In this document: piece by piece, positions 19,134 to 61,510 of the stretch
Position numbering within the stretch: position 1 is the first letter of the stretch
How the letters are laid out: each line of letters opens with the position of its first letter
Source: Terriglobus sp. TAA 43
Lineage (GTDB): Bacteria > Acidobacteriota > Terriglobia > Terriglobales > Acidobacteriaceae
Length of the DNA: 64,000 nucleotides
Reading direction: 5' to 3'
Assembly: GCF_000800015.1 (NCBI RefSeq)
Contig: NZ_JUGR01000001.1
Location: 930,001 to 994,000, forward strand
Translations under genes and position numbers: made by a program
The notes under the pieces: generated by a model
The model's database searches: none
Seen by the model: only the letters and a program-made list of their open reading frames with translations
What the model was told of the DNA's origin: nothing

Positions 19134-20600
19134 ATGCTCCGTACTCGAACGGTCGCTCTTATCAGCCCCTCTACTCCCTTCCTGCAAGCCGCAGTAACTG
19201 CCTTGACCTTTGAAGGTCATGACGTTGTCGCTTTTGAGGCGCTCACAGAAGCGCTCGGCGCAATGCAAAATAGATCATTCGATGCAGTTGTCATCGATGT
19301 ATCTGCGCGGCCACCACGTGATCAACGCTCTTTAGCCAATATCGTCAGACTTGCGGGGAAGGATAGGATCTGGATCGCTCTACCACTAGGCGTAAGCCCC
19401 TGGGCATCAGATGCGGAACAACTCGGCATTCGACATACACTTGGCGTTCCCCTTCGTTCGGCTGAACTTGAAGAGGTATTGACTTATCTTCAGGAGCTTC
19501 CATCTTCCCCAGCTTCTTACGAAGCTGAACCCGCACAGTCGCGTCCTGTGCACATCGAGGATCTTCCCAATAACCGCTATTTTCTGGCGGCCAGCCCTTC
19601 GATGATGCGGATTTACGAAAACATTCGTTTACTCGCGCAAGTAGATGCGCCAGTACTCATTCTGGGTGAAAGCGGCGTGGGTAAGGATGTTATCGCTAAC
19701 CTTCTTCACAAGCATTCCCGCCGTGCTGCGCACCCATTCTGCTCCGTAAATTGTGCAGCTCTTCCTCCCGACCTACTTGAGAGCGAACTCTTCGGCTATG
19801 AAGCGGGAGCCTTTACTGGAGCCGTCAAGGCAAAGCCTGGCCGGTTCGAACAGGCGGACAAAGGAACACTGCTACTGGACGAGATCGGCGAAATGAGCGC
19901 CCCGATGCAGGCGAAACTCTTGCATGTATTGCAAGATGGTCGCTATTCCCGCCTGGGCGCACGCACTGTATCAACCGCTGATGTCCGTGTAATCGCGGCC
20001 ACCAATGTAAATATTGATAGTGCAATTGCAGACAAGTTATTCCGCGAAGATCTTTATTACCGCATCAGCACATTCACAATTCAAGTGCCGCCGCTCCGCG
20101 AGCGCCGCGAAGAAATACCATATTTAATTGAGGAAATGGTGAAACGGCAGGCAATGGCGTTCCATCAGGACCCGGTTTATATTTCTCCCCGCATGATGTC
20201 GATATTGCAGGAATATGAATGGCCTGGTAACTTGCGCGAACTTGGCAATGCCGTTATTCGTATGCAAGTACTTAAAGGACAGGAGTCCTCAATCTCCGAC
20301 ATCGAGACCAAGGTCCTGGGTAAGGTTGCAAAGGTCCAGTCTTGCAGCAAGGATGCGCCCGAGCCGGAAGTAAGTGTGAACGAAATGCGGTCGATCGTCA
20401 GAAATTTCAAAGATCAAACGGAAAGCCGCCTGATTCAGCAGGCGCTGGAAGAGGCTCGATGGAATCGCAGACAGGCGGCCCTGGCTCTACGGATCAGCTA
20501 TCGCACTTTGTTATATAAGATTGAGCATTACCGGTTGAAAGAAACCCGCGTACCAATGCATTTCGATGTGCAGAACAGCGGTACTTCTCTTCCCGCCTAA
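19134..20600 (+). CDS. sigma-54 enhancer-binding protein (NtrC family), degenerate receiver
   Basis: A 488-residue activator in three parts. The N-terminal domain (1-115) has a receiver-like fold with a central D55 (VVIDVS), but the acidic pair is replaced by ISPS, so phosphorylation is doubtful. The AAA+ domain (about 145-385) has Walker A GESGVGKD, the sigma-54 contact loop GAFTGA, Walker B LLLDEIGEM and the arginine-finger region. A Fis-type helix-turn-helix closes it (RRQAALALRISYRTLLYKI). It sits at the border of the EPS locus, whose transcription units carry -24/-12 promoters, so it is the likely activator. Followed by tandem terminators. Confidence 0.95.
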   Translation: MLRTRTVALISPSTPFLQAAVTALTFEGHDVVAFEALTEALGAMQNRSFDAVVIDVSARPPRDQRSLANIVRLAGKDRIWIALPLGVSPWASDAEQLGIRHTLGVPLRSAELEEVLTYLQELPSSPASYEAEPAQSRPVHIEDLPNNRYFLAASPSMMRIYENIRLLAQVDAPVLILGESGVGKDVIANLLHKHSRRAAHPFCSVNCAALPPDLLESELFGYEAGAFTGAVKAKPGRFEQADKGTLLLDEIGEMSAPMQAKLLHVLQDGRYSRLGARTVSTADVRVIAATNVNIDSAIADKLFREDLYYRISTFTIQVPPLRERREEIPYLIEEMVKRQAMAFHQDPVYISPRMMSILQEYEWPGNLRELGNAVIRMQVLKGQESSISDIETKVLGKVAKVQSCSKDAPEPEVSVNEMRSIVRNFKDQTESRLIQQALEEARWNRRQAALALRISYRTLLYKIEHYRLKETRVPMHFDVQNSGTSLPA

Positions 20601-20663
20601 GGTAACGCCACAAAATTACTCTAAAGTAACTGCATTGGTGTTCCAGATAGATACAGAACTGAG

Positions 20664-20687
20664 AAAAGGGAGGTCACCCTCCCTTTT
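20664..20687. terminator. rho-independent terminator, copy 1 of a tandem pair
   Basis: AAAAGGGAGG (20664-20673) pairs with CCTCCCTTTT (20678-20687) around a TCAC loop, followed by more T residues. It is flanked by A and T runs on both sides, so it can work in both directions between the convergent genes ending at 20600 and 20735. Confidence 0.85.
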
Positions 20688-20708
20688 TCTTATGCATTTA
20701 GCGCTAAG

Positions 20709-20732
20709 AAAGGGGAGGATACCCTCCCCTTT
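20709..20732. terminator. rho-independent terminator, copy 2 of a tandem pair
   Basis: AAAGGGGAGG (20709-20718) pairs with CCTCCCCTTT (20723-20732) around an ATAC loop. Its sequence and its flank (TATGCATT after the stem) closely resemble copy 1, suggesting a local duplication. It ends two bases before the stop codon of the minus-strand epimerase gene. Confidence 0.85.
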
Positions 20733-20734
20733 TC

Positions 20735-21739
20735 CTATGCATTGACCAATGCTTTTTCTCGTTCCTTCTTTATTTGTTCCTTTTGCCATTCGATCGTACG
20801 GATGAGCCCCTCTTCCAACTGCACAGAAGCGCGGAATCCTAAGAGCCGTTCTGCTTTCCGAATATCTGGAACGCGCCGCAAGACATCCTCATACTTACGT
20901 CCAGCAATAGCGTCGTACGGAATCATGTCGATCTTGGGCTCGCCTGGCTTGCCGCACAACCGGTGGATTTCACGGGCCAAATCAAGGATCGTTATCTCTC
21001 GGTTATTACCAATGTTAACAATCTCCAGATTTGCAGTGGTCGCTTCAGCCGCCGCAACGATGCCACGTGACGTGTCTTCCACGAATGTGAAGGAACGCGT
21101 CTGCTGGCCGTCACCATGAATCGGGATAACTTCATCATTCAGAATTGCATTGATGAATACCGACTGCGGGCCGCCCCACCATGTCAGATTTTGACGTGGG
21201 CCATACGAACCAAAGATACGAAGAACTGTGGCATAAATGCCAGCCTCTTCCGCCATCGCAAGAACCAGGTGCTCATCGAACATCTTCGACGCTGCATATG
21301 CCCAGCGAGCTACCGTGGCTGGTCCCAGAACGCAGACTCCATCCTCCGCGAATGGCACATCCGGGCTCTTACCGTAGACGTCAGAAGTGGAGGTAATAGT
21401 GAAGCGCGCCCCACTCTCGATTGCTACCTGCAACGCGTTCTGCGTGCCAATCGAGTTGACGAGTAGCGTCTTCTTTGGGTTTTCATATCGCGGAATCTTA
21501 TAGGCCGCCAGATGAATAACACTGTCGACCTTGCCGGCTGCGTCTCGCAGAGCTGCGAGATCACATACGTCAACTGCGCGAAACTCAAAAGACGGATGCG
21601 ACGAGGCAGCTTCGAGATTGCGCATATGACCGTGTGACAGATCATCTACCGCAATTACTTCGTAGCCCTTTGCGAGCATCCGATCCGTCACATGAGATCC
21701 CAGAAATCCTGCGGCTCCCGTAATAAGTACTCTCTTCAT
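20735..21739 (-). CDS. NAD-dependent nucleotide-sugar epimerase/dehydratase (SDR)
   Basis: A 334-residue extended SDR protein. The Rossmann motif GAAGFLGS is at residues 8-15, the catalytic Ser/Thr lies in ITSTSDVYG (116-123) and the YxxxK pair is Y148/K152 (YAASK). Closest to UDP-glucose/UDP-GlcNAc 4-epimerases and related dehydratases; the exact reaction cannot be told. Last gene of a minus-strand operon (25909 to 20735) that makes nucleotide sugars for the EPS. It overlaps the 2-epimerase gene by ATGA. Confidence 0.88.
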   Translation of the reverse strand: MKRVLITGAAGFLGSHVTDRMLAKGYEVIAVDDLSHGHMRNLEAASSHPSFEFRAVDVCDLAALRDAAGKVDSVIHLAAYKIPRYENPKKTLLVNSIGTQNALQVAIESGARFTITSTSDVYGKSPDVPFAEDGVCVLGPATVARWAYAASKMFDEHLVLAMAEEAGIYATVLRIFGSYGPRQNLTWWGGPQSVFINAILNDEVIPIHGDGQQTRSFTFVEDTSRGIVAAAEATTANLEIVNIGNNREITILDLAREIHRLCGKPGEPKIDMIPYDAIAGRKYEDVLRRVPDIRKAERLLGFRASVQLEEGLIRTIEWQKEQIKKEREKALVNA

Positions 21740-23639: not shown

Positions 23640-23669
23640 AGTTCTTTATCACCCCGGGACTGCCGCCAG

Positions 23670-24506: not shown

Positions 24507-24541
24507 GATTTATATCTCTCTTTCTCGCTTATCGGCGCCGA

Positions 24542-25909
24542 CTAGCAGTGCACAATCTTCGTGGACTCAATTCCGCGGGTTGCATTGCGGCTGTCCACTA
24601 CAAGCTGTGCGTTCTTGACGATCGAGGCGTAATCGTAATCCGAGTGATCCGTGGCGATGACGACACAGTCGAACTCTGCGATACGATCCAACGGCGTGCA
24701 GGTCATGCCCAGGTCGTAGTGACGACCGCGGCCGACTGTCGCGAAGTAAGGATCGTTGTATTCCACGAGTGCCTTCTCGTCCTGCAGCATCTCGATGATC
24801 TCGAGTGAAGGAGATTCGCGAAGATCGTCAATGTCCTTCTTGTATGCCATACCGAGCACCAGGATGCGGGAGCCATTGATCGACTTGCGATGCGAGTTGA
24901 GAGCATTGGCCACAGCCTGTACCACGTAGCGCGGCATGCCTTCGTTGATCTCACCTGCGAGCTCGATGAAGCGGGTGTGGAAATTCCACTCGCGCGCCTT
25001 CCAGCTCAGATAGAACGGATCGATCGGAATGCAGTGACCGCCGAGGCCGGGGCCCGGGTAGAAGGCCTGGAAGCCGAACGGCTTGGTCTTCGCGGCATCA
25101 ATGACTTCCCAGATATCGATTCCCATCTTCTGCGAAAGAATCTTGAGTTCGTTCACAAGCGCGATGTTCACGCAGCGATAGATGTTCTCAAGAAGCTTCG
25201 TCATTTCGGCGGCCTGTGTGGAGGAAACCGACACAGTCTTGGCGAAGATGTTGTTGTAGAGTGCGGATGCCAGGCGTCCAGAATGTGCGCCATGCCCACC
25301 GATGACCTTGGGAATATCTCGACGTGCGACCGTGTTGTTACCTGGGTCCTCACGCTCCGGCGAGAAGGCTACGAAGAAAACATCGCCATCCGGATCCATT
25401 CCCTCTTCATACGCGCACAGTCCTTCGGGGCTGCCGGCATTCAGAATCGGGATGAGCACTTCTTCCGTCGTTCCGGGATAGGTTGTGCTCTCAAGCACAA
25501 CGAGCTGTCCACGGCGCAGCCAGGGAGCAATGGACTCCGCGGTGCGTTCGATGAAGGAGAGATCGGGATCGCGATGCTCTGTGAGTGGAGTCGGTACGCA
25601 AACAATGATTGCGTCCTGATCGGAGATCTTCGAGAAGTCGGTCGTCGCACGGAATCCCTGCGAACGAGCCATCTCGATTTCAGTCGGAGGAATACGGAAG
25701 ATGTAGCTCTTCCCTTCCTCAAGTTGGCTGACTTTAGCCGTATCGATGTCAAATCCCTGGATAGCGACACCCGCTTCCGAGAACAAGAGTGAGAGAGGCA
25801 GACCGACATATCCAAGGCCGATGACGCCAACCTTTGCAGTCTTCGCTTGGAGCTTATCGAGTTGACGCTCCACTTGATGGGCACGTGATGCGAGAGTTGC
25901 GCTGTTCAT
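24542..25909 (-). CDS. UDP-N-acetylglucosamine/mannosamine 6-dehydrogenase (WbpA/WecC family)
   Basis: A 455-residue nucleotide-sugar dehydrogenase that oxidises C6 to a carboxylate in two NAD-dependent steps. The Rossmann motif is VIGLGYVGLPL (29-39), and the catalytic C293 is in GGHCIPIDPFYLSWKA, the form found in the WbpA/WecC group. First gene of the minus-strand nucleotide-sugar operon. No Shine-Dalgarno sequence precedes ATG 25909. The candidate sigma-54 promoter at 25922-25938 would place transcription start about two bases upstream, suggesting a near-leaderless mRNA. Confidence 0.94.
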   Translation of the reverse strand: MNSATLASRAHQVERQLDKLQAKTAKVGVIGLGYVGLPLSLLFSEAGVAIQGFDIDTAKVSQLEEGKSYIFRIPPTEIEMARSQGFRATTDFSKISDQDAIIVCVPTPLTEHRDPDLSFIERTAESIAPWLRRGQLVVLESTTYPGTTEEVLIPILNAGSPEGLCAYEEGMDPDGDVFFVAFSPEREDPGNNTVARRDIPKVIGGHGAHSGRLASALYNNIFAKTVSVSSTQAAEMTKLLENIYRCVNIALVNELKILSQKMGIDIWEVIDAAKTKPFGFQAFYPGPGLGGHCIPIDPFYLSWKAREWNFHTRFIELAGEINEGMPRYVVQAVANALNSHRKSINGSRILVLGMAYKKDIDDLRESPSLEIIEMLQDEKALVEYNDPYFATVGRGRHYDLGMTCTPLDRIAEFDCVVIATDHSDYDYASIVKNAQLVVDSRNATRGIESTKIVHC

Positions 25910-25921
25910 GCCGGGACATGT

Positions 25922-25938
25922 TGCACGGGTCGGGCCAA
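25922..25938 (-). promoter_or_regulatory. candidate sigma-54 promoter for the nucleotide-sugar operon
   Basis: On the minus strand the sequence is TTGGCCCGACCCGTGCA: GG and GC are 12 bases apart, and 15 of 17 positions fit the YTGGCACGNNNNTTGCW consensus. Predicted start of transcription is near 25911, two bases before the ATG. It faces the promoter at 26119 divergently. Confidence 0.6.
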
Positions 25939-26118
25939 ACCCAAATCCATCGCAAGAGCTTAGTAATTACCGCGCAATATCCATACTTTCGTAACTTCCA
26001 TCGACTAACTAAACCGGAAAGTAACGTGACGGTGTGCAAAGAGTATGCAGAAGTTTGCGTCTCTCTTTTGCTTTCGGCCACGAAGCCTCAAAACCAGCCC
26101 CGTAAACCGGCATTTGCA

Positions 26119-26135
26119 TTGGCACAACAATTGCA
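26119..26135 (+). promoter_or_regulatory. sigma-54 promoter, strong match
   Basis: TTGGCACAACAATTGCA fits the -24/-12 consensus at all positions but one, with correct spacing. Predicted start is near 26146, giving a leader of about 34 bases before ATG 26180. This also shows that the longer open frame from 26045 is not the real start. Confidence 0.85.
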
Positions 26136-26179
26136 CAGACATAAGCAAACGATTCCTAGATTGGGGAGACGGAACGGAC

Positions 26180-27295
26180 ATGGATACACGCTTGAAGTTG
26201 GGTGTGGTGGGTCTTGGAGCCTGGGGTTGCAACGTCGCACGTTGCCTATATGAGTTGCCTGATTGCGATCTGGTGGTTTGCAGCGACCTGAGCGAGAACC
26301 GCCGCACGATGGCGGAGCGCAACTGGGGTGTGCAAACAGTTGCATCTCTTGACGAAATGATCGCGCAATTCCCGGAAATTACAGCAGTTGCCATCGCGGC
26401 GCCGGCAGTCTTGCATTATCCGTTGGCGAAGAAGGCTCTGCTCGCAGATAAGGATGTTTTCGTCGAAAAGCCATTCACGCTGAACGTCGCTGACGCGGAA
26501 GAGTTGATGGCACTGGCGGAAGAGCGCGGCAAGGTGCTGATGGTGGGTCACCTTCTCGAATATCACCCTGCCGTGAATAAGATTCGCGACATTGTGCAGG
26601 CAGGCGAGCTCGGGGATGTCTATTACATCTACACGCAGCGCGTAAACCTTGGCCGCATCCGTGGAGATGAGAACGCGATGTGGAGCTTTGCTCCGCATGA
26701 CATCTCCCAGATCCTTTACATCCTGGGCGAAGAGCCGGTGGACGTCAGCGCCCGCGGTCAGTCCTACATCCAGGACGGAATTGAAGACGTGGTGTTCCTG
26801 AGCCTCTTCTTCAAGAATCGCCGGATGGCACACATCCACATTTCCTGGCTCGACCCGCACAAGATGCGCAGCACCACCGTGGTCGGCAGCAAGAAGATGC
26901 TTGTGTTCGACGACGCCGCCACAACGGAAAAGCTGCGTATTTATGACAGCGGAGCCCAGCAGCAAGCAACCTCGTCCTACGGCGAAGCAATCCAGGTGCG
27001 ATTTGGAGATATCCAGATTCCGCATCTCGCGACCACTGAGCCGTTGAAGCTGGAATTCCAGCACTTCATTCAATGCGTGAACAAGCGTCTGACACCTCGC
27101 AGCGATGCGAAGGATGGTCTCCGCGTGGTGCGCATTCTGGAAGCAGCTCAGAAATCGCTGGAACTCGATGGACTGCCGATTTCGCTCAAGTCCGGCCTGG
27201 CACGTAAGCGCATGCCGAAACTCAATCCCATGGATCGCCAGTGGACGCCTCAGATGCCGGTTGCAGGGCGCGCTCCCGTGGTGGCAGTTTCCTAA
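26180..27295 (+). CDS. Gfo/Idh/MocA oxidoreductase (WbpB-like)
   Basis: A 371-residue NAD-dependent oxidoreductase. The Rossmann motif is VVGLGAWGCNVA near the N-terminus, the family motif EKPFTL (about 96-101) is clear, and HLLEYHPAV plus APHDISQ mark the substrate domain. In the WbpA-B-E-D-I pathway the family member WbpB oxidises C3 of UDP-GlcNAcA; the dehydrogenase, aminotransferase, acetyltransferase and epimerase of that route are all in this locus. The start is ATG 26180, downstream of the sigma-54 promoter. First gene of a long plus-strand EPS operon. Confidence 0.9.
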   Translation: MDTRLKLGVVGLGAWGCNVARCLYELPDCDLVVCSDLSENRRTMAERNWGVQTVASLDEMIAQFPEITAVAIAAPAVLHYPLAKKALLADKDVFVEKPFTLNVADAEELMALAEERGKVLMVGHLLEYHPAVNKIRDIVQAGELGDVYYIYTQRVNLGRIRGDENAMWSFAPHDISQILYILGEEPVDVSARGQSYIQDGIEDVVFLSLFFKNRRMAHIHISWLDPHKMRSTTVVGSKKMLVFDDAATTEKLRIYDSGAQQQATSSYGEAIQVRFGDIQIPHLATTEPLKLEFQHFIQCVNKRLTPRSDAKDGLRVVRILEAAQKSLELDGLPISLKSGLARKRMPKLNPMDRQWTPQMPVAGRAPVVAVS

Positions 27296-27308
27296 GGGCG
27301 AGAATCAC

Positions 27309-32873: not shown

Positions 32874-32887
32874 TGCAGTCAGTTGCA
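32874..32887. promoter_or_regulatory. TGCA-N6-TGCA palindromic element, site 1
   Basis: TGCAGTCAGTTGCA lies within the larger inverted repeat GTGCA-N6-TGCAC (32873-32888). It is 87 bases upstream of the -24 box at 32961, a usual distance for an enhancer-binding protein site. Similar elements are at 53202 and 61352. Confidence 0.4.
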
Positions 32888-32958: not shown

Positions 32959-32975
32959 TTGGCTCTCCGGTTGCA
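32959..32975 (+). promoter_or_regulatory. candidate sigma-54 promoter of the export operon
   Basis: TTGGCTCTCCGGTTGCA has GG and GC 12 bases apart and a perfect TTGCA -12 element. Predicted start near 32986 leaves a 17-base leader with AAGGAAAGGG before ATG 33003. The longer frame starting at 32871 would run through this promoter, so ATG 33003 is preferred. Confidence 0.75.
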
Positions 32976-49666: not shown

Positions 49667-51224
49667 AGCACTGGCTCTTTTATTGCCACTTCTCTGCTTC
49701 GCCACAACACGAGCAGGCGCAGAGCAGGTGCCGCCGCACATCTCCTATAGCGACCTGACCAGCGCGCCCGCCACAGGCGGCGAGTCAGATCAAGGCGCAT
49801 TCATCACGCTCTATGGAAGCGGCTTCGGCGACAAGCGCGGAGCAGGCTACATCACCATTGGTGGAGAGCGCGCATTCGCTTATCCCATCTGGTCTGAGCG
49901 CACGCTCACCTTCCAATTGTCGAGCCGCTCTCAGTCCGGCCCCGTCGTTGTTCACACAGACAGGGGCGCATCGAACGAACTTCACATTTCGGTCCGAGCA
50001 GGACACATCCATTTCTATCCAGAAAGAAAGGGTGAAACACTTCGGTCTGCAGTCGACAAGCTCCATGCGGGAGACATTCTTTATCTCCGCGATGGCGTCT
50101 CCGTAAATGCACTTGATCGTTACGAATCGTCATGGAACATCATGAGCAGTGGCCGCAAAGACAGCCCCATTGCGATCGTTGCTTACCCTGGTGCCAACGT
50201 AACAATCGGTTCAGTCGATGGCCCACACATCGCAGCCAGAACTCCGAATGTCGAGAGAACCTCTGATCACTGGGTAATCGCAGGTTTACATTTCGTTGGC
50301 AACCAAGAGGCGATGGACATTACCGACTCCAAGGACTGGCGGGTTGTGGGTAACGACTTCACCTGCCCGCGTGGATTCGGCCCAACAGGCTGCGTCGAAA
50401 TGTCGCAGGTCTCTGACGTTGCATTTCTAGGGAACAATGTCCATGACGTAGGCTTGCCAAGAACAACGAAGGTGTATCACGGCGTCTATTTCAGCACTGA
50501 CAGCAATCACATCGACGTCGGATGGAACACAATCGCAAACGTGCGCGGATGCCGCGGCCTGCAATTTCATTCCACACCGACCGATCCCGGCACCGGACTT
50601 AATCAGTACGACATACACATTCATGACAACGTGATTCACGACACCGCTTGCGACGGCATCAACCTCGCAACGATCAATCCCTCTGCCGGCCCCGTTGAGG
50701 TATTCAACAATCTTCTCTACAACACCGGCCAGGGTCCTGATCCTCAGGATGGCAGCGCAAACTACGCTTGCATTTATATACAAGGTGGCTCGAACGCCGG
50801 CCCCACAAGCAGTGGAGTTGTCGATGTCTACAACAACACCATGTTTCGTTGCGGAGGAAGACGCAACACAGATTCCGGCGCCATCGCTTTAGCCGGCGGA
50901 TCGACGAGACAGGCTATCAGGCTACGAAATAACATCATCGTTCTCGACGGCAGTGTCCCGCTTTTCTCTCCCAACAGCAGACCAGTGCCGTTTCAAGCAC
51001 AAGCAAATCTGGTCTGGTGGCTGCAGCCAGGAAAGGATGCACGATCGCATCTTCCGGAAGGTTTTCAGCTTGTGAATCCTATGCTGCGCAATCCCGCCAG
51101 CGGAGATTTTCGTCTCTCAGACGCTAGCCCGGCGCTGCATCGAGGCGTCCCCACTGCATTGAACTGGACATTGGATGGACGTGCGCGAACTTCCAAAATC
51201 CCCGATAGCATCGGAGCCTTTTAA
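49608..51224 (+). CDS. secreted IPT/TIG plus right-handed beta-helix protein
   Basis: A 538-residue exported protein. Signal peptide about 1-38 (ALALLLPLLCFATTRAGA); an IPT/TIG-like domain (HISYSDLTSAPATGG, ITLYGSGFGDKRG) to about 125; then a parallel beta-helix with repeated NN/GN turns (VVGNDFTCPRG, FLGNNVHDVG, DVGWNTIANVRG, DIHIHDNVIHDTACDGINLA). ATG 49608 is chosen because AGAAGGA precedes it. It is a shorter paralog of the C-terminal third of the protein at 53302. It may bind, cleave or epimerise the polymer; no catalytic residues can be named. Confidence 0.85.
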   Translation: MKAIWNTRYFYGHYWRVRCRALALLLPLLCFATTRAGAEQVPPHISYSDLTSAPATGGESDQGAFITLYGSGFGDKRGAGYITIGGERAFAYPIWSERTLTFQLSSRSQSGPVVVHTDRGASNELHISVRAGHIHFYPERKGETLRSAVDKLHAGDILYLRDGVSVNALDRYESSWNIMSSGRKDSPIAIVAYPGANVTIGSVDGPHIAARTPNVERTSDHWVIAGLHFVGNQEAMDITDSKDWRVVGNDFTCPRGFGPTGCVEMSQVSDVAFLGNNVHDVGLPRTTKVYHGVYFSTDSNHIDVGWNTIANVRGCRGLQFHSTPTDPGTGLNQYDIHIHDNVIHDTACDGINLATINPSAGPVEVFNNLLYNTGQGPDPQDGSANYACIYIQGGSNAGPTSSGVVDVYNNTMFRCGGRRNTDSGAIALAGGSTRQAIRLRNNIIVLDGSVPLFSPNSRPVPFQAQANLVWWLQPGKDARSHLPEGFQLVNPMLRNPASGDFRLSDASPALHRGVPTALNWTLDGRARTSKIPDSIGAF

Positions 51225-52480
51225 GAGGCTACCTGCGACCTATCGCTCTGCTGCAGGAGCTGCAGCAGTATCTTCTCGAAGCCGGCGCGTCCCTTTTCAA
51301 CATCGAAACGCGACGCCCATTCCAGTCCATGCACGTGGAATCGGTTTCGCAATTCGTCGTCAGACATTAGAAGCGCAATCGCGTCTGCAATTTGAGAGAC
51401 CGATTCACCATCGACAAGCAGTCCATTGCGACCATGATCGATCGCATCACCTGTGCCTCCAGCTACGCCACCAATAACAGGCAGGCCACAAGCCGCAGCT
51501 TCAAGAAAGACCACCCCAAAGCCTTCCGTATCTCCGTTCAGATTGCGATTGGGTTGCAGGAAAACGTCAGCGGCTTCATAGCATCCCGGCAGATCTTCGT
51601 CAGAGACGAAACCTAGAAACTCCACCACATCTTCAAGCTGCAGCTCGCTGATCAGACGTTGAAGTGCTCCCAACTCCGATCCCTTACCCGCAATCACATA
51701 GCGCCAATCACTTTGCAAATCGCCGCTCTGTTTTAACCGAGCAAGCGCTCGCAAGGCCTGATCAATTCCCTTTCTGGGTTCAAGCCTCGCTACCGTCAGC
51801 AACACCTTCTTGTCGTTCCATCCATAACGGCTGCGAATTTCTTCTCGCCGTCCGGATACATAGAAACGATCATGGTCGATAAAGTTCGGCAATACAGTCA
51901 CGCGATCGGAGATACGCGCAATCAGGTCTGCCGTGTAGCGACTCACAGCGATATTCATATCGGCATCGCGCAAACTACGCCTTTGATAGGCACGCATGAT
52001 CGGTTGCAGAAACGCAGGAGCCACCTGCATTGTGAGTTCTTCACCATGAACATAGTTCACCAGAAGTGAACGGGACGGATTTGCCGGCATCAGCCAACCG
52101 GCAGAGTAAGTACCTCCGCAGACGATGACGGACGGTGAGTACTTTCTGCAGAGCGCCTTCCACTGCCTTCTGCCTCGCACAAAAAACCGTGCCAGCGACG
52201 GTAGCAACAGACATGCCTTCGCAAGAGGCGAACGCGCGTTCTGCGGCAGATGAAACTCAAACGCATCCATCCGCTCCACCGAAAAGCCGAGGGTCTCCAC
52301 AGCCATGCCATCCCAGGCGTGTGCCGTCTCAGGATCCACCTTCCAGTTGTCTGCAACCACGACAATGCGGAAGCCCTTGAACTGTCGCAGCAACCCCAGG
52401 TAAATCTGAACCACGCCGCCGTGATACCCCGGAGCAAAGTATGGCGCGACAAAGAGCAGGAGCGGACGTTCGTCAGGCAT
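51221..52480 (-). CDS. glycosyltransferase family 4
   Basis: A 419-residue GT-B enzyme: LLLFVAPYFAPGYHGGVVQIY at the N-terminus, YVHGEELTMQV, VLPNFIDHDRF at the hinge, LTVARLEPRKGIDQALRAL and the donor motif EGFGVVFLEAAACGLPVIGG. Second gene of a short minus-strand operon, overlapping the acetyltransferase gene by eight bases and the beta-helix gene tail-to-tail by four. Confidence 0.93.
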   Translation of the reverse strand: MPDERPLLLFVAPYFAPGYHGGVVQIYLGLLRQFKGFRIVVVADNWKVDPETAHAWDGMAVETLGFSVERMDAFEFHLPQNARSPLAKACLLLPSLARFFVRGRRQWKALCRKYSPSVIVCGGTYSAGWLMPANPSRSLLVNYVHGEELTMQVAPAFLQPIMRAYQRRSLRDADMNIAVSRYTADLIARISDRVTVLPNFIDHDRFYVSGRREEIRSRYGWNDKKVLLTVARLEPRKGIDQALRALARLKQSGDLQSDWRYVIAGKGSELGALQRLISELQLEDVVEFLGFVSDEDLPGCYEAADVFLQPNRNLNGDTEGFGVVFLEAAACGLPVIGGVAGGTGDAIDHGRNGLLVDGESVSQIADAIALLMSDDELRNRFHVHGLEWASRFDVEKGRAGFEKILLQLLQQSDRSQVAS

Positions 52481-53042
52481 CGATCAGGCACTCTTCCTTA
52501 ATTTGTGCGTCGGATGGCGGACGTCGCTTCACGATCTCGGCGGGCACCCCCATGACCGTGGCTCCCGCGGGAACGTCACGGGTCACAAGCGAATTGGCAG
52601 CGATCCGTGCGCCGTCACCGATCACGATAGGACCGATGAGTACAGCGCCCGTTCCCACGTATACGTTATTTCCCAGCCGCGGCACCCCACGCGAGCCGAC
52701 GCCTCGGGTACCCAGGGTCACGTGGTGCGCCAGATCGCAGTTGCTACCAATCACGACATCCGGGTGGAGAGTAATACCTCCACAATGCGCTATCAGCAAC
52801 CCCGGCCCAATCTGTGCCTGTACATTCAGGCGCATCTGTAGGAACGCCTCAATGAAGCTTGAGCCGAGTACGTGAATCACCTTCAGTGGCAACCAAAGGA
52901 CCCGGGCCTTTCGAGGCGCATAAATCCATCTCCCTAGTCGATACCAGAGAAGGCACCATACCGCCGGATTGAGAGCCATTCGGCGTCCGGATTCGCCAGA
53001 AGCTTTATACCTGGCGCAATCTGTCTGAAAATCTGAGATCAA
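52473..53042 (-). CDS. serine acetyltransferase-like hexapeptide protein
   Basis: A 189-residue LbetaH acetyltransferase of the CysE-like group seen in EPS clusters: IGPGLLIAHCGGITLHPDVVIGSN (His in the active-site region), HHVTLGTRG, GTGAVLIGPIVIGDGARIAANSLVTRDVPAGATVMGVPA. The start is TTG 53042, preceded by GGGGGA at a good distance; no ATG is available near the homology start. Likely O-acetylates a polysaccharide sugar rather than serine. A candidate sigma-54 promoter lies 12 bases further upstream. Confidence 0.85.
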   Translation of the reverse strand: MISDFQTDCARYKASGESGRRMALNPAVWCLLWYRLGRWIYAPRKARVLWLPLKVIHVLGSSFIEAFLQMRLNVQAQIGPGLLIAHCGGITLHPDVVIGSNCDLAHHVTLGTRGVGSRGVPRLGNNVYVGTGAVLIGPIVIGDGARIAANSLVTRDVPAGATVMGVPAEIVKRRPPSDAQIKEECLIDA

Positions 53043-53064
53043 ATATGTCCCCCAACCAACTCAT

Positions 53065-53081
53065 TGCACGTAGGCCGCCAT
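53065..53081 (-). promoter_or_regulatory. candidate sigma-54 promoter, minus-strand operon
   Basis: Minus-strand sequence ATGGCGGCCTACGTGCA: TGGC and GTGCA with GG and GC 12 bases apart. Predicted start near 53054 gives a 12-base leader holding GGGGGA before the TTG start. The middle positions deviate from consensus. Confidence 0.5.
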
Positions 53082-53139: not shown

Positions 53140-53162
53140 TTTCGCGTGAGTTGTACGCGAAA
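53140..53162. repeat. inverted repeat between divergent promoters
   Basis: TTTCGCGT (53140-53147) and ACGCGAAA (53155-53162) form a perfect eight-base inverted repeat with a seven-base spacer. A further TTTCGCGT half-site occurs at 53272-53279. It lies between two candidate sigma-54 promoters and may be a regulator site. Confidence 0.45.
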
Positions 53163-53188
53163 TCAACAACTTAGAGAGCCTGGAAGAA

Positions 53189-53205
53189 AAGGCTCCGAAA
53201 TTGCA
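53189..53205 (+). promoter_or_regulatory. candidate sigma-54 promoter of the giant lipoprotein gene
   Basis: AAGGCTCCGAAATTGCA has GG and GC 12 bases apart and a perfect TTGCA. Predicted start near 53216 leaves an 86-base leader before ATG 53302. Confidence 0.55.
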
Positions 53206-53215
53206 ATTTGTTGCA
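53202..53215. promoter_or_regulatory. TGCA-N6-TGCA palindromic element, site 2
   Basis: TGCAATTTGTTGCA overlaps the -12 element of the plus promoter and lies about 125 bases upstream of the minus-strand -24 box at 53079. Same layout as the elements at 32874 and 61352. Confidence 0.35.
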
Positions 53216-53301
53216 CACGATCATATCGATCCAAGATGTCCCGGTCTCGCTTTGCCGCGAGTCAAGAGTCATTTCGCGTTTGAAAAGACGGAGTCAGCAA
53301 T

Positions 53302-56300
53302 ATGCACGTTCGCAGTACCTCCAACCATTTTTTGCAGCTCGTTTTGGTTAGGCCAGTCGCAAAAGTAGCTCTTCTGGCCATGTTTTTTGCTTCATTTGGG
53401 TTGGTGAGTGGATGCGGATCAGGGTATGGCGTAGTCGCCACCGCTTCGAGCACCTCCGTCACAATGAACGCCGGCCAAACGGTTCAGATTCCGCAAGCCA
53501 CCACACATTCGTCCAAGTGGACGCTGAGCGGTATCGGGTGCAATGGGGCGAACTGCGGAACTATCGAGCCAAGCCTTAACTCCATCACCTATACCGCTCC
53601 CGCGACGGTTCAGTCGCAGATCCACGTGACAGCGGCGACGGATGACACTACAGGCAAGTTTGAGGCAACCGTCAACCCTGCGCTCAAAGTCAATGCATCG
53701 CTTAAGAATGCCACCGTCAACACTGCGTACACAGCAACCGTATCGACCAGCGGTGGATCGAGCCCAACACATATGGCGCTTTCATCGGGCGCCCTTCCCG
53801 CCGGTATGCAGTTCAATGCATCGAGCGGTCTGATCTCTGGAACACCAACCACTGCGGGCGACTATCCTGTGACCTTCCAGGCGACCGATGCCAGTGTCGC
53901 CGGCACAGCCACGACGGTCCAGACCACCGTTCGAGTACTCGCCAGTTCGCAAACTTCCTCTGTCAATATCACGACGTCGTCGCTCGATGTGGGCATCGTC
54001 AACCTCGCTTATAGCGCGGTATTGACTGCCAATGGTGGGACGACTCCATATACCTGGACCATCGCCTCCGGTTCTTTGCCTGCGGGGATCGCGCTTAGCG
54101 GCGACGGAGTGATAAGCGGAACGCCCACCGCCGCTGGCACCGCCAACTTTACGGCACAGATCACCGATAGCGCCGGCTCAAGCAGTTCCGTACCTCTAAC
54201 ACTTCTCATCCTCGATAGCGGTGCTCCTTCTACGCCACTGACAATCAGCGCACCTGGTGCGGGCACTGTGGGGACCGCTTACACCGGAACTATCGGCGTG
54301 TCAGGCGGTACAGCTCCGTATAACTGTTCCGTTGCTGGCGGACTCCTCCCGGACGGTCTTGTTCTGAATGGATGCGTCCTCACGGGTATGCCTACCACTG
54401 CAGGCAGCTATCCATTTGACGTCACCGCGACGGACGCTGCTTCTCCCTCGAATTCGTTTACCGCAACCATCGTTGTCAACATCGTCGATGCAGCCACAGA
54501 GCTTACGATCGGGCCTCCAGCATCCGCTACGGCCGGTGTCCCCTACAACTCCTCCATCTCAGTCAGCGGAGGCAAAGGTCCATATACCTGCTCGCTGATC
54601 AACGGGTCACTGCCGGCAGGCATCACTCAAAACAACTGCGCTCTGACAGGAACGCCTTCGGCACCGGGTACCTTCCCGATTCGAGTCAACGCTACTGACT
54701 CCAGCAATCCTGCGAACACCGCGACGGCAACGTTTTCCCTGGTCGTCGGCGGCACCGCGGGACCACTAACTCTCGCATCACCTCCGGCAGCAACCGTTGG
54801 TGCGACCTACAACGCAGCCATCGGCATTACCGGTGGAACCGCGCCTTATACCTGTTCAATCACCAGCGGAACATTGCCCAACGGACTAAGCCTAAACGGC
54901 TGCGCCCTCAGAGGCATCCCCACAACGGAGGGCAGCTATCCTCTTGGGGTCAAGGTATCGGACTCTTCCGGCACGACCACAACTGGAAGCATCGTGGTTA
55001 CAGTTGATTCCGCTGCAGCCTCGCTGGTGATCTCTTCCCCGGCCGCGGGAACGGTTGGAATGGCCTACAGTGGCACCATCGGTGTGAGCGGTGGCACTGC
55101 GCCTTACACATGCTCGCTCATTGGCGGAGCTCTGCCAGCGGGCATCGCGCAGAACAACTGTGCTCTGAGGGGAACCCCCACGACATCGGGCAACTTCTCC
55201 TTCGCAGTCAGAGCCACCGACTCCAGCAGTCCTGCAAATACCCGTACCGGGACGCTCTACATGGCGGTGAACGCCGCCCCGCAACTCAACATCTCATCAC
55301 CCGCGGCAGCAACTGTCGGAAAGGCTTATAGCGGCGCAATCGGTGTCACCGGCGGCACTGCACCCTATAGCTGCTCGATCGCCAGCGGTACACTTCCTGC
55401 CGGGCTCGCTCTAAATGGATGCACCCTGACCGGAACACCAACAAGAGCGGGAAGCTATTCGCTCGGAATCAGGGCTTCGGACTCTTCCTCGACGCCCATC
55501 TCCACAACAGGAAACGTCGTCGTTACAGTCAGCGCCGCCCCGGTCACATTGGTATTGACCTCTCCTGCACCAGGAACGGTTGGGGTGTCCTACAGCAGCA
55601 CCATCGGCGTAAGTGGTGGCACCGCGCCTTACACGTGCGCGCTCATTGGCGGAGCTCTTCCAGCAGGCATCACGCAGAATAACTGCTCTCTGACAGGAAC
55701 TCCCACGGCATCGGGTACCTTCTCGTTCGCAGTCAGGGCAACGGATTCCGCCAACCCCGCGAACACCAGGACAGGGACTCTGTCGTTCGTAGTGAACGCC
55801 GCAGCGGGTCAGCTCAACCTCACAGCACCAGCGGCCGCAACCGTTGGTACGTCGTACGGCGGAAGAATCGACGTCACCGGTGGTACGGCACCGTACAGAT
55901 GTTCACTCGTGAGCGGTACAGTTCCTGCAGGGCTCGCCCTCAATGGATGCTACCTCTCGGGTACACCCACAACGGCAGGAAGCTATTCGCTTGGGATCAA
56001 GGCAACAGACTCCTCCGCCACGCCCATTTCCACGACCAGCACCATCTTGGTCCAGGTTAATGCCGCACCCGTCACGTTGACTCTGACTGCTCCTGCCGCA
56101 GCAACACAGGGCACTACCTACAGCGGCATCATCGGCGTAAGCGGTGGCACTGCGCCTTACACGTGCACGATCACCGGCGGCAATCTGCCTGCAGGAATCA
56201 CACAGAACAACTGCGCTCTGACTGGAACTCCTTCGGCATCCGGCACCTTCTCAATCACAGTTAATGCGAAGGATTCCAGTGCCACTCCGAATAGCAGGAC

Positions 56301-58659
56301 ATCAACGCTTTCCTTCGTGGTAAATCCTGCGGCTGGTCAACTCACGCTTACATCACCTCCCACAGCCACCGTTGGCTCCACATACACCGGAACCATCGGC
56401 GTTAGCGGCGGCACTGCACCCTATACGTGCTCGCTGGCCAGCGGCACACTTCCTGCAGGCCTCACGATGAACGGCTGCGCCCTGGCAGGTACACCCACAA
56501 CATCAGGACGCTACTCACTGTCGATCAGGGCATCAGACTCCTCCGCAACGCCAATCTCGACAACAGGCAACATCGTGGTCCGAGTCAATGCAGCTGTCGC
56601 ACTGACCTTGACCTCTCCTGCGGCAGGAACGGTAGGCACCACGTACAGCGGCACAATCGGCGTACGTGGCGGCACCGCGCCTTACACCTGCTCGCTCACC
56701 AGCGGCACAGTTCCTGGCCTCACCCTGAGCGGATGCGCTCTCATGGGAACTCCGACAACAGCAGGAACCTACACACTGGGAATTGGTGTATCAGACTCTT
56801 CCTCAACTCCCGTCTCTACGTCTGGAAACATCACGGTAACCATCAACGCCGCGCCGACAGTTACGCTCACACTCTTTGCTCCCCCGGCGGCCACAGTTGG
56901 AACGGCCTACACCGGAACAATCAGCGTAAGCGGAGGCACCGCGCCGTACACCTGCTCGCTTGCCAGCGGCTCGGCTCCCGCTGGATTGACACTGAACAAT
57001 TGCACTCTCACTGGCACTCCGACAACTGCTGGATCGTTCACTCTTTCCATCAAAGCGTCCGATTCCAGTTCCCCAGCCAACACCACAACAGCGAATGTCA
57101 CTGCCGTTGTGAATTCAGCCCCCTCAAACACTCCCTCGGGAGCACCGCACATTAATTACACCGATCTCAACGTTGGCAGCGGTACAGGCGGCGACAACGG
57201 AAACGGCGTATACGTTCGAATCTTCGGCGCCAACTTCGGTTCCAGCCAGGGATCCAGCAACGTCACAATCGGCAACGGTTCTATCGTTACCAATTGCGCG
57301 CTGTGCTCGTGGAGTGACACGCAGATCATCGCTCAACTCGGTTCGTCCGCAACCACAGGACAAGTCGTCGCAACAGTCAACGGTCTGCAATCCAACGGAG
57401 TGCCCTTCACCGTTACGCCGACGACAATCCTCTTCGTCTCTCCAAATGGTTCTGACTCCAACAGCGGTTCGTTTACATCGCCGTTCAAGACCTGGCGTGC
57501 GGCGTTCAATTCCGCAACTTCGAACGATTCCAGGTCGCCATCGCAGAACACCGTGATCTACCTGGAACCCGGAACCGACGTCACCTTCGACGACGGCCGT
57601 GGATACAAGGCAGCAATCTCCACGGACAGAGGCGGTTCATCCGCTACCAGCCAGCTTTCCATCGTGGGTTATCCCGGCGGCACCGTGACCGTGGGTAGCT
57701 CTTCCATCACCAATGGCGTGCACGGATGGGCTAACTTCGTCACCATCGCAAACCTCAACATCGTCGGACAGGTTTCGGCAATCGATGCTGAGGCGGGCGA
57801 CGTCCGCATCATCAACAACAGCATCTCCTGCCCGGCTCCTCCGTCTGGCGTAGGTGGCACAGCCTGCGTCCTGGGTGAAACCACCGATCCCACCGAGACA
57901 TGGGTATTCCAGGGCAACAACGTGCACGACACGGGCGGTAACGTCGACAAGACCTACCACGCTGTCTACTTCTCCAGCAACGTGAACCACGCAGATGTGG
58001 GTTGGAACAATGTCGGTCAGAACTTCAAGGGTTACTGCCGCGGCATCATGTTCCACGCAACACTCGGCAACAACGAGTATGACCTTCACGTCCACGACAA
58101 CATCGTCACCAACTCTTACTGCGACGGCATTGCGTTGGCTTCGGTGAATCCTTCTCTGGGTACCGTCGAGGTCTACAACAACGTCGTATCGAATGCTGCG
58201 CTCGCATCGAACCCCTACGGTGTCGCGAATGAAGCAGGCATCGCTATCAATACGGATCCTGCCGGCGGCGGCAGCAGCGGCAACGTCGAGGTCTACAACA
58301 ACACCGTCGTGAACGCTGGCGCATATACCCTTGGCAACCAGAATGGCTGCTTCGGAGTTGTTCTGAGTGGTGCTGGTATGCACCTCACAAACAACATCTG
58401 CTCTCAGCCGTCATCCTCGCAGCCCTACATTGAGAAAGGATCGACCAACGTCAGTGGTAGCAACAACCTCTGGTATGGTGCCGGTGCCGCTCCCTCGTGG
58501 GACTCCGCTCCCATCACGTTGAATCCCTTGTTGTCGGCGATCTACTCCTTGCTGGGCTTGTCACCCGCAAGCGGCGCCGGAACAACGTCGATCATGTCAC
58601 CGTTCGACATCCTCGGAAATGCACGCGGCTCGCGGCCTTCCGTGGGTGCATATCAATAG
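53302..58659 (+). CDS. giant lipoprotein with 13 Ig-like (He_PIG) repeats, IPT/TIG and beta-helix
   Basis: A 1785-residue surface protein. The lipobox VSGC places the lipidated cysteine at C38. After a short domain come 13 Ig-like repeats of about 83 residues (128-1270; for example IGVSGGTAPYTCSL and LTGTPTTAGSYSL). An IPT/TIG domain (PHINYTDLNVGSGTGGD) follows, and residues about 1370-1785 form a right-handed beta-helix like that of the protein at 49608. Repeats 3-13 each have one conserved Cys pair. It is probably an adhesin or matrix protein holding or processing the EPS. Followed by a strong terminator. Confidence 0.9.
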   Translation: MHVRSTSNHFLQLVLVRPVAKVALLAMFFASFGLVSGCGSGYGVVATASSTSVTMNAGQTVQIPQATTHSSKWTLSGIGCNGANCGTIEPSLNSITYTAPATVQSQIHVTAATDDTTGKFEATVNPALKVNASLKNATVNTAYTATVSTSGGSSPTHMALSSGALPAGMQFNASSGLISGTPTTAGDYPVTFQATDASVAGTATTVQTTVRVLASSQTSSVNITTSSLDVGIVNLAYSAVLTANGGTTPYTWTIASGSLPAGIALSGDGVISGTPTAAGTANFTAQITDSAGSSSSVPLTLLILDSGAPSTPLTISAPGAGTVGTAYTGTIGVSGGTAPYNCSVAGGLLPDGLVLNGCVLTGMPTTAGSYPFDVTATDAASPSNSFTATIVVNIVDAATELTIGPPASATAGVPYNSSISVSGGKGPYTCSLINGSLPAGITQNNCALTGTPSAPGTFPIRVNATDSSNPANTATATFSLVVGGTAGPLTLASPPAATVGATYNAAIGITGGTAPYTCSITSGTLPNGLSLNGCALRGIPTTEGSYPLGVKVSDSSGTTTTGSIVVTVDSAAASLVISSPAAGTVGMAYSGTIGVSGGTAPYTCSLIGGALPAGIAQNNCALRGTPTTSGNFSFAVRATDSSSPANTRTGTLYMAVNAAPQLNISSPAAATVGKAYSGAIGVTGGTAPYSCSIASGTLPAGLALNGCTLTGTPTRAGSYSLGIRASDSSSTPISTTGNVVVTVSAAPVTLVLTSPAPGTVGVSYSSTIGVSGGTAPYTCALIGGALPAGITQNNCSLTGTPTASGTFSFAVRATDSANPANTRTGTLSFVVNAAAGQLNLTAPAAATVGTSYGGRIDVTGGTAPYRCSLVSGTVPAGLALNGCYLSGTPTTAGSYSLGIKATDSSATPISTTSTILVQVNAAPVTLTLTAPAAATQGTTYSGIIGVSGGTAPYTCTITGGNLPAGITQNNCALTGTPSASGTFSITVNAKDSSATPNSRTSTLSFVVNPAAGQLTLTSPPTATVGSTYTGTIGVSGGTAPYTCSLASGTLPAGLTMNGCALAGTPTTSGRYSLSIRASDSSATPISTTGNIVVRVNAAVALTLTSPAAGTVGTTYSGTIGVRGGTAPYTCSLTSGTVPGLTLSGCALMGTPTTAGTYTLGIGVSDSSSTPVSTSGNITVTINAAPTVTLTLFAPPAATVGTAYTGTISVSGGTAPYTCSLASGSAPAGLTLNNCTLTGTPTTAGSFTLSIKASDSSSPANTTTANVTAVVNSAPSNTPSGAPHINYTDLNVGSGTGGDNGNGVYVRIFGANFGSSQGSSNVTIGNGSIVTNCALCSWSDTQIIAQLGSSATTGQVVATVNGLQSNGVPFTVTPTTILFVSPNGSDSNSGSFTSPFKTWRAAFNSATSNDSRSPSQNTVIYLEPGTDVTFDDGRGYKAAISTDRGGSSATSQLSIVGYPGGTVTVGSSSITNGVHGWANFVTIANLNIVGQVSAIDAEAGDVRIINNSISCPAPPSGVGGTACVLGETTDPTETWVFQGNNVHDTGGNVDKTYHAVYFSSNVNHADVGWNNVGQNFKGYCRGIMFHATLGNNEYDLHVHDNIVTNSYCDGIALASVNPSLGTVEVYNNVVSNAALASNPYGVANEAGIAINTDPAGGGSSGNVEVYNNTVVNAGAYTLGNQNGCFGVVLSGAGMHLTNNICSQPSSSQPYIEKGSTNVSGSNNLWYGAGAAPSWDSAPITLNPLLSAIYSLLGLSPASGAGTTSIMSPFDILGNARGSRPSVGAYQ
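53683..57111 (+). repeat. thirteen tandem Ig-like repeats with alternating subtypes
   Basis: Period about 249 bases. Repeats 4, 6, 8 and 10 carry a QNNC turn and an ANT-type C-terminal strand. Repeats 3, 5, 7, 9 and 11 carry LNGC or MNGC and an ISTTGN-type strand. This points to duplication of two-repeat units. Repeats 1 and 2 lack the Cys pair. Confidence 0.85.
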
Positions 58660-58675
58660 CGATCTTGGAGTCGCT

Positions 58676-58704
58676 GGGGCGACGAAGTTTGTCGCCCCTT
58701 TTTT
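58676..58704 (+). terminator. rho-independent terminator
   Basis: GGGGCGAC (58676-58683) pairs with GTCGCCCC (58691-58698), followed by six T residues. It lies 16 bases after the giant lipoprotein stop; the T tract reaches into the stop codon of the convergent sugar-transferase gene. Confidence 0.9.
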
Positions 58705-60043: not shown

Positions 60044-60052
60044 GGTCGTCTC

Positions 60053-61201: not shown

Positions 61202-61247
61202 TCTTGTCCCCCATTTCGCAGGTGTAGACCACCTTGCCCCATGCTGT

Positions 61248-61264
61248 TGCACGTCGGCGGCCAG
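61248..61264 (-). promoter_or_regulatory. candidate sigma-54 promoter, aminotransferase operon
   Basis: Minus-strand sequence CTGGCCGCCGACGTGCA with GG and GC 12 bases apart. Predicted start near 61237 gives a leader of about 36 bases with GGGGGA before ATG 61201. Three consensus mismatches. Confidence 0.5.
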
Positions 61265-61350
61265 ATCAGGAATCGCGCGGATGGGCGGGTTTTCGGCGAA
61301 ATTCAGGCAGATATGGCCGTTGCACCGTCCTGCCGATGGGGATCACACAA

Positions 61351-61366
61351 TGCAAGGGTTTGCATA
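61351..61366. promoter_or_regulatory. TGCA-N6-TGCA palindromic element, site 3
   Basis: ATGCAAGGGTTTGCAT is a perfect six-base inverted repeat. It lies between two divergent candidate sigma-54 promoters, about 90 bases from the minus and 140 bases from the plus -24 box. The rest of the 61202-61558 interval holds only those promoters. Confidence 0.4.
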
Positions 61367-61493
61367 CTTTTCGCGCGCGTCGGCAGTCGACTTCAGCGGT
61401 TACGCAACCTCCCTGGGAGCCATAATCCGGCGCTTTCCTGCAATTCATTGGGACTTTACATGCAGATGCGCCGCGCCACCCCCTGTTTCTCCA

Positions 61494-61510
61494 ATGGCAT
61501 GGCAAATGCA
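61494..61510 (+). promoter_or_regulatory. candidate sigma-54 promoter, SDR-epimerase gene
   Basis: ATGGCATGGCAAATGCA has GG and GC 12 bases apart and TGGCA/TGCA cores. Predicted start near 61521 gives a leader of about 38 bases with AAGGAG at 61544-61549. Confidence 0.5.

What the first reader, a model, noticed from the sequence alone, without database searches (positions are those of the whole stretch)
19134..61510. An EPS locus apparently wired as a sigma-54 regulon, with its activator at the border
Seven sites with exact -24/-12 geometry lie in front of EPS transcription units: 25922(-), 26119(+), 32959(+), 53065(-), 53189(+), 61248(-), 61494(+). Six form three divergent pairs. Predicted starts leave short leaders that in most cases contain the ribosome site of the gene start chosen independently. 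The window's only enhancer-binding protein (19134-20600, GAFTGA intact) sits next to them. Nucleotide-sugar, export, surface-protein and initiating-transferase genes would then switch on together. The single-gene matches vary in strength; the set is what is convincing.
Basis: partly seen in the sequence, partly recalled or inferred. Interest (0 to 1): 0.8.

Follow-up and report, generated by a model that had tools for sequence, protein, structure and literature searches.

The report
Sigma-54 switch for Terriglobus slime genes
A soil bacterium of the Terriglobus group appears to switch on its exopolysaccharide gene locus through an activator gene at the locus edge, which would bind a short repeated DNA palindrome and fire several sigma-54 promoters; the wiring is conserved in relatives but is a new example of a known kind of control.

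Summary
The observation largely holds. A plain consensus scan gives no excess over shuffles (47 vs 41), but six of the seven sites (25922-, 26120+, 32960+, 53065-, 61248-, 61495+) keep TGG-N9-TGC at the aligned place in the 6 to 8 loci aligned, own included. The seventh, 53190+, is doubtful: it lacks the T of TGG and overlaps another element. New here: each of the four promoter regions holds one conserved palindrome, TGCA-N6-TGCA (G for the last A in region A), a candidate enhancer. The 6-bp spacer is singled out here and, independently, in 16 loci of other genera. The enhancer-plus-promoter composite matches 45 places in the 4.95-Mb genome, five in this locus; with one and the same ORF mask, 3 of 5 here and 0 of 40 elsewhere are wholly noncoding (5 of 5 vs 4 of 40 if gene starts are trimmed by 150 nt). 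rpoN is present. The activator gene lies at or in the locus in relatives; a 73%-identical paralogue is a caveat. Its receiver is degenerate here, canonical in distant orthologues. Best reading: a SypG-like sigma-54 polysaccharide regulon. No expression data were available.

The parts
19134..20600 (+). enhancer-binding protein (EBP1): receiver-like N-terminus without acidic pair, Thr/Ser or Lys; AAA+ with GAFTGA; Fis-type HTH
   Evidence: Pfam PF00158, AAA_lid, HTH_8, no PF00072; receiver-like beta/alpha order in the model; HTH core invariant in 24 of 24 aligned members
18694..19008 (+). small hydrophobic protein (104 aa) upstream of the EBP; possible partner (inference)
   Evidence: similar ORF in 7 of 7 Terriglobus loci, not seen in G158
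25922..25937 (-). -24/-12 element A- (for 24542-25909 and following genes)
   Evidence: kept in 8 of 8 aligned loci, own included
26046..26059 (.). candidate enhancer A, TGCA-N6-TGCG, with an extra TGCA at 26035
   Evidence: TGCA-N6-TGC kept in 8 of 8 aligned loci, own included
26120..26135 (+). -24/-12 element A+ (for 26180-27295 and following genes)
   Evidence: perfect consensus; kept in 8 of 8, own included
32874..32887 (.). candidate enhancer B, TGCA-N6-TGCA
   Evidence: kept in 7 of 7 aligned loci, own included
32960..32975 (+). -24/-12 element B+ (for the wza-type gene with likely start 33003 and the downstream wzz, wzx, wzy, glycosyltransferase genes)
   Evidence: kept in 7 of 7, own included; 5 of 5 relatives
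53065..53080 (-). -24/-12 element C- (for 52473-53042 and 51221-52480)
   Evidence: kept in 6 of 6 by alignment, own included; 2 of 5 in the automated test
53190..53205 (+). doubtful -24/-12 element C+ (for the 1785-aa surface protein 53302-58659)
   Evidence: GG-N10-GC kept but no TGG, matrix score 9.6, overlaps enhancer C
53202..53215 (.). candidate enhancer C, TGCA-N6-TGCA
   Evidence: kept in 6 of 6 aligned loci, own included
61248..61263 (-). -24/-12 element D- (for aminotransferase 60053 and priming transferase 58703)
   Evidence: kept in 8 of 8, own included
61351..61364 (.). candidate enhancer D, TGCA-N6-TGCA
   Evidence: kept in 8 of 8 aligned loci, own included
61495..61510 (+). -24/-12 element D+ (for the epimerase with likely start 61559)
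   Evidence: kept in 8 of 8, own included

Best explanation
The locus is a sigma-54 regulon. RpoN-RNA polymerase sits in closed complexes at six (perhaps seven) -24/-12 promoters that head the EPS transcription units. The EBP at 19134-20600 (or, in part, its 73% paralogue) binds a TGCA-N6-TGCA palindrome 60-130 bp upstream, one per promoter region and shared by the divergent pairs, and opens the complexes by ATP hydrolysis. Nucleotide-sugar enzymes, export and chain-length proteins, Wzx/Wzy and the priming transferase would then be made together. Shown: presence and conservation of promoters and palindromes, EBP synteny, rpoN. Inferred: that this EBP binds this palindrome, that it is the main activator, and that transcription follows. 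The input signal is unknown; the receiver domain is degenerate, so classical phosphorylation is unlikely in this genus.
For: rpoN present, one match. EBP with intact GAFTGA. EBP and EPS genes syntenic in five fully covered same-genus genomes, plus T. roseus and Granulicella-type loci as far as held. Sites kept in 5 of 5 relatives: 4 of 6 intergenic vs 1 of 32 called-coding, that one being B+ before its likely start; Fisher p 1e-3 as called, 4e-5 with B+ moved to noncoding. Palindrome spacer scan in noncoding DNA, N6 against the mean of the other 15 spacers: 3 vs 0.27 (own), 10 vs 1.7 (five relatives), 15 vs 2.0 in 16 loci of other genera chosen by EBP and not by motif. In those 16 loci 9 of 15 noncoding palindromes (8 of 14 if two overlapping ones are merged) have TGG-N9-TGC 30-160 bp away pointing outwards, against 11.4% of random noncoding positions. 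Composite pattern: 45 genome hits, 5 in this locus of 0.9% of the genome (binomial p 5e-5); wholly noncoding under one mask 3 of 5 here vs 0 of 40 elsewhere, or 4 of 5 vs 2 of 40, 5 of 5 vs 4 of 40 and 5 of 5 vs 9 of 40 when 5' ends of ORFs are trimmed by 90, 150 or 300 nt. HTH core (WNR..AA..L.ISY..LLYKI) invariant in 24 of 24 aligned members; 7 of the 8 other strong EBPs of the genome have other residues there and the eighth had none aligned.
Against: No binding, transcription-start or expression data. A plain consensus count is not enriched. A paralogous EBP with nearly the same HTH exists, so the activator could be either or both. C+ is not a good site. A- would leave a 2-nt leader. The promoter matrix was trained on these same sites, so its scores are not independent. 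Two of the five EPS composites (A+, B+) fall inside ORFs as called mechanically and count as noncoding only with the later starts, and a few composites elsewhere also become noncoding when starts are trimmed. Palindromes of this sequence also occur inside genes (26331, 33460, 53807). No exact palindrome lies in the region upstream of the EBP gene itself. Two of the five relatives (G095, G031) are close.
Confidence: 0.8

Rival explanations
1. Sigma-54 regulon, but the main activator is the paralogue at C2:371753-373186 or another EBP; the border EBP is a neighbour only.
For: The paralogue is 73-74% identical with a nearly identical HTH; the genome has ten strong EBPs.
Against: The EBP stays at the locus in Terriglobus and Granulicella-type loci. 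The same-genus genomes G128, G148 and G194 returned only one EBP at E <= 1e-100 and keep the sites. The paralogue has no palindrome in the 20-kb stretch scanned around it. Seven of the eight remaining EBPs differ in the HTH; the eighth had no residues aligned there.
Confidence: 0.13
2. The conserved palindromes are sites of an unrelated repressor or activator and the -24/-12 matches are chance; the promoters are sigma-70.
For: TGCA is a short palindrome; simple -24/-12 counts are not enriched.
Against: Six promoter matches kept in the aligned loci, while no site clearly inside coding DNA was kept in 5 of 5 relatives; composites concentrate in this locus; the palindrome recurs near EBP genes in other genera with -24/-12 sites at 30-160 bp.
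Confidence: 0.05
3. The locus belongs to the PEP-CTERM/PrsK-PrsR sigma-54 system.
For: Export, chain-length and priming proteins hit XrtA-type families, below their cut-offs; Haft 2006 describes an activator motif plus -24/-12 motif and an EBP near EPS genes (PMC1569441, passages read).
Against: The EBP scores 272 bits against a 502.6 cut-off for PrsR; no exosortase (PF09721) match in the genome; no PrsK over cut-off and none of the 39 kinase matches lies in the window.
Confidence: 0.02

Closest known systems
Vibrio fischeri syp locus with SypG (bEBP)
   Same: Polysaccharide locus of several operons activated by sigma-54 and an EBP encoded within the locus (PMC10162802, passages read: 18 genes, four operons, SypG).
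   Different: SypG is activated by phosphorylation of a conserved Asp in its REC domain (same passages); here the receiver has lost most catalytic positions, regions A and D each hold a divergent promoter pair around one palindrome, and the lineage is Acidobacteriota.
PEP-CTERM PrsK/PrsR system
   Same: Activator motif plus -24/-12 motif, EBP near EPS genes (PMC1569441, passages read).
   Different: There the targets are PEP-CTERM genes, mostly single-gene operons; here PrsR is below cut-off and no exosortase was found.
BerB/RpoN control of Bep polysaccharide in Burkholderia
   Same: EBP and RpoN control polysaccharide production (PMC5552954, passages read).
   Different: BerB binds c-di-GMP and acts through berA; the FleQ Arg-Asn positions (recalled as c-di-GMP contacts) are not kept in this EBP (alignment).
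Sigma-54 as controller of the bacterial exterior (Francke 2011)
   Same: General association of sigma-54 with EPS and envelope genes (PMC3162934, passages incl. part of the abstract).
   Different: The terms Acidobacteria, Koribacter and Solibacter do not occur in its main text.

Membership tests
Sigma-54-dependent promoters | TGG-N9-TGC (-24/-12) kept at the same place in relatives | tested here: met
   six of seven sites (C- only 2 of 5 in the automated test)
Sigma-54-dependent promoters | transcription start about 12 bases downstream and rpoN dependence | not testable with these tools
   no RNA data
Sigma-54-dependent promoters | rpoN in the genome | tested here: met
   Sigma54_DBD, E 3.9e-59, one match
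bEBP (NtrC-type activator) | AAA+ with GAFTGA plus Fis-type HTH | tested here: met
bEBP (NtrC-type activator) | canonical phospho-receiver (found in many but not all bEBPs; recalled) | tested here: not met
   no PF00072 in the window EBP, found in 13 of 24 aligned members; acidic pair, Thr/Ser and Lys lost, Asp55 kept
SypG-type polysaccharide regulon | EBP gene with the polysaccharide locus and several sigma-54 operons | tested here: met
SypG-type polysaccharide regulon | EBP shown to bind and activate | not testable with these tools
   needs binding and deletion tests
PEP-CTERM/PrsR system | PrsR equivalog score and exosortase | tested here: not met
   272 of 502.6 bits; no exosortase match
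FleQ/BerB c-di-GMP-responsive EBPs | c-di-GMP contact residues (recalled from FleQ) | tested here: inconclusive
   one Arg and the ExxxR kept, the Arg-Asn pair replaced in the alignment

The most novel reading that the evidence does not exclude
In this genus the activator has been uncoupled from phosphorylation: the receiver decays across the family (canonical in distant orthologues, degenerate in Terriglobus) and the signal now comes through a membrane route, for example the conserved small hydrophobic protein encoded just upstream (18694-19008) or the divergent winged-helix/PD40 regulator (16394-18583), so that an EPS regulon shared across the family has had its input swapped while its enhancer code stayed fixed.
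Probability: 0.25. Interest if true: 0.65.

Novelty: new member of a known kind. Interest (0 to 1): 0.48.

Why it matters
It gives a concrete, testable regulatory code (enhancer palindrome, promoter set, activator) for exopolysaccharide in soil Acidobacteriota, a trait proposed to help them survive in soil (start of abstract of PMC5259719 in the listing). The same palindrome is enriched around related EBP genes of other genera in the family, so it offers a way to predict such regulons there. It also shows a family of activators whose DNA-reading helix stayed constant while the receiver domain decayed.

Tried and rejected
Consensus counting over the window: no excess, so dropped as evidence. 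Site 53190+ considered and left as doubtful. The high-scoring site 46170+ inside 44884-46290 was set aside: it is not among the sites kept in three or more relatives. Paralogue neighbourhood (L072, 20 kb): no palindrome or promoter. PEP-CTERM membership rejected. Genome palindromes of the TGCARN4YTGCA form (54 places; the reversed-pattern control of 25 is not a fair one because its base make-up differs): eight loci of that list were looked at one by one, none with a promoter within 160 bp; the rest were judged through the composite searches alone. Composite searches allow 46-138 bases after the second TGC and need TGCA as first arm, so A- cannot match by design. ORF masks are mechanical (at least 100 aa). 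Of 67 EBP hits, 27 EBP1, 9 second-EBP and 8 other rows were aligned (duplicates and some near-identical or short rows left out), and 24 in A1; 2 of the 9 second-EBP rows (L188, L175) did not align over the HTH. L030 (T. albidus) and G148:C53 share contig length and were treated as one genome. The third composite search covered the own genome only. The Foldseek match of the model to NtrX and NtrC-type structures supports the architecture only.
Full report
What the window is. The window lies in a 4.95-Mb genome (C1:930001-994000) of the Terriglobus group: its EBP has 70% and 66% relatives in T. albidus and T. roseus, and the same-genus genome G148 holds the T. albidus contig (same length). From 19134 to 62542 it holds an EBP gene and an EPS locus: UDP-sugar dehydrogenase and 2-epimerase, a Gfo/Idh/MocA dehydrogenase, a DegT aminotransferase, hexapeptide proteins, Wza-type export, Wzz, Wzx, Wzy, several glycosyltransferases, a priming transferase and large Ig/cadherin-like surface proteins.

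Observation. The seven sites exist. A consensus search alone is not enriched (47 vs 41.2 expected). Footprinting carries the case. Intergenic regions of orthologous loci were aligned and every quoted site was found back in its source: A- and A+ in 8 of 8 loci, B+ in 7 of 7, C- in 6 of 6, D- and D+ in 8 of 8, own included. The set is not fully independent, since G095 (95% identical EBP) and G031 (90%) are close; the more distant ones are G128, G148, G194, T. roseus (region A only) and the Granulicella-type loci (not region C). In the automated test 4 of 6 intergenic TGG-N9-TGC sites were kept in 5 of 5 relatives against 1 of 32 in called coding DNA, that one being B+ in front of its likely start; two coding sites were kept in 4 of 5 and one in 3 of 5. 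C- scored 2 of 5 there. Fisher tests: p 1e-3 as called, 4e-5 with B+ counted as noncoding. The seventh site, 53190+, lacks TGG in all six species aligned and overlaps a palindrome.

A second element. The alignments show one conserved palindrome per promoter region, TGCA-N6-TGCA: 32874, 53202 and 61351, and 26046 with TGCG as second arm. It lies 60 (A+), 72 (B+), 87 (D-), 108 (A-), 121 (C-) and 130 bp (D+) from the promoters. Scanning spacers 0 to 15 in noncoding DNA, N6 stands out: 3 against a mean of 0.27 in the own locus, 10 against 1.7 in five relatives, 15 against 2.0 in 16 loci of other genera that were picked by the EBP alone; in 139 kb of the same genome outside the locus N6 is 2, as are three other spacers. 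In those 16 loci 9 of 15 palindromes have an outward -24/-12 site at 30-160 bp against 11.4% of random noncoding positions; two of the nine are overlapping palindromes sharing one promoter (8 of 14 if merged, p 4e-5); six have none. Targets there include a 2713-aa surface-type protein and a second, short EBP.

Specificity in the genome. Three composite searches (palindrome arm pair, 46-138 bases, TGGY-N8-TGC) gave 14, 13 and 18 hits in this genome. Five are A+, B+, C-, D- and D+; five of 45 in 0.9% of the genome has a binomial p of 5e-5. All 45 were put under one ORF mask: wholly noncoding are 3 of 5 here (A+ and B+ lie in ORFs called too long) and 0 of 40 elsewhere; with 5' ends trimmed by 90, 150, 200 and 300 nt the figures are 4 vs 2, 5 vs 4, 5 vs 5 and 5 vs 9. 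So a handful of further targets cannot be excluded. In G128 and G148 similar composites stand elsewhere, one before a TonB-receptor gene.

The activator. rpoN is present; PF00158 hits ten strong and two weak places. The EBP sits at the border of the locus in Terriglobus and Granulicella-type loci; in G052 it lies between two parts of it. In the draw of 200 family genomes 106 have a match at E <= 1e-100, not all shown to be near EPS genes. Its HTH core is invariant in 24 of 24 aligned members, its ISY-LLYK stretch is shared by 7 of 9 short second EBPs (two did not align there) and by none of 7 other strong EBPs of this genome (the eighth had nothing aligned). Two same-genus genomes without a 1e-100 match (G166, G180) carry shorter matches with the same kind of HTH and a TGCA-N6-TGCA palindrome in the flank. 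A 73% paralogue shares the HTH and is the main caveat. The N-terminal 120 residues show the alternating beta/alpha order of a receiver in the model (mean pLDDT 84.6, pTM 0.54); Pfam's receiver model hits 13 of 24 members but not this one, and the acidic pair, Thr/Ser and Lys are gone while Asp55 stays (which positions matter is recalled). So the input is probably not classical phosphorylation.

How it works. The model is in Best explanation. With the predicted starts, five leaders are 12-38 nt with purine-rich ribosome sites and one (A-) is 2 nt. A possible use is joint expression of a split sugar pathway: the dehydrogenase, 3-dehydrogenase-like, aminotransferase, acetyltransferase-like and 2-epimerase genes sit behind A-, A+ and D-. 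The resemblance to the Wbp route to a diacetamido uronic acid is recalled and was not tested.

Known or new. Sigma-54/EBP control of polysaccharide is known: SypG in V. fischeri (PMC10162802, passages), PrsR (PMC1569441, passages), BerB (PMC5552954, passages), and the general association in Francke 2011 (PMC3162934, passages). A 2025 survey of sigma-54 regulons has no mention of Acidobacteria or Acidobacteriota in its main text (PMC12316311, find). Searches of the held papers for sigma-54, rpoN or EBP with EPS, polysaccharide or biofilm in Acidobacteria or Terriglobus listed no title or abstract start describing this regulon; I saw 2 of 2, 9 of 9, 12 of 68 and 12 of 16 papers, and the library lacks most subscription journals. 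The finding is a new member of a known kind.

Noticed in passing
window 18694-19008 (+): Small hydrophobic ORF (104 aa, two hydrophobic stretches) directly upstream of the EBP; a similar ORF in 7 of 7 Terriglobus loci but not seen in G158.
   Followed up: partly
window 16394-18583 (-): Winged-helix regulator with PD40 repeats, divergent from the EBP, present at the same place in the Terriglobus and Granulicella-type loci, not found in the MAG locus L033.
   Followed up: partly
window 25909-25911 (-): The predicted sigma-54 start leaves a 2-nt leader before the conserved ATG of the sugar dehydrogenase: possibly a leaderless transcript.
   Followed up: no
G000:C2:371753-373186 (L008, L072): Paralogue of the EBP (73-74% identical, nearly the same HTH) in a stretch with a radical-SAM gene and a 1373-aa Ig-type protein, without palindrome in those 20 kb.
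   Followed up: partly
L183 10441-10530, L184 1109-1195, L185 9336-9424: In G128 and G148 the same palindrome plus a -24/-12 site stands in other places; the L185 copy (= L139) is in front of a TonB-dependent receptor gene.
   Followed up: partly
L174, L176, L177, L181, L182, L187, L189 (and L175, L188) near EBP1: In other genera a second, short EBP (AAA+ and HTH only in the two scanned) sits near EBP1; in L175, L177, L182, L188 and L189 a TGCA-N6-TGCA palindrome lies at or just before its start, suggesting a two-step cascade.
   Followed up: partly
G000:C1:837416-840905: A 979-aa open frame matching both ends of the PrsK kinase model (below cut-off) next to an EBP, in a genome without an exosortase match.
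   Followed up: no
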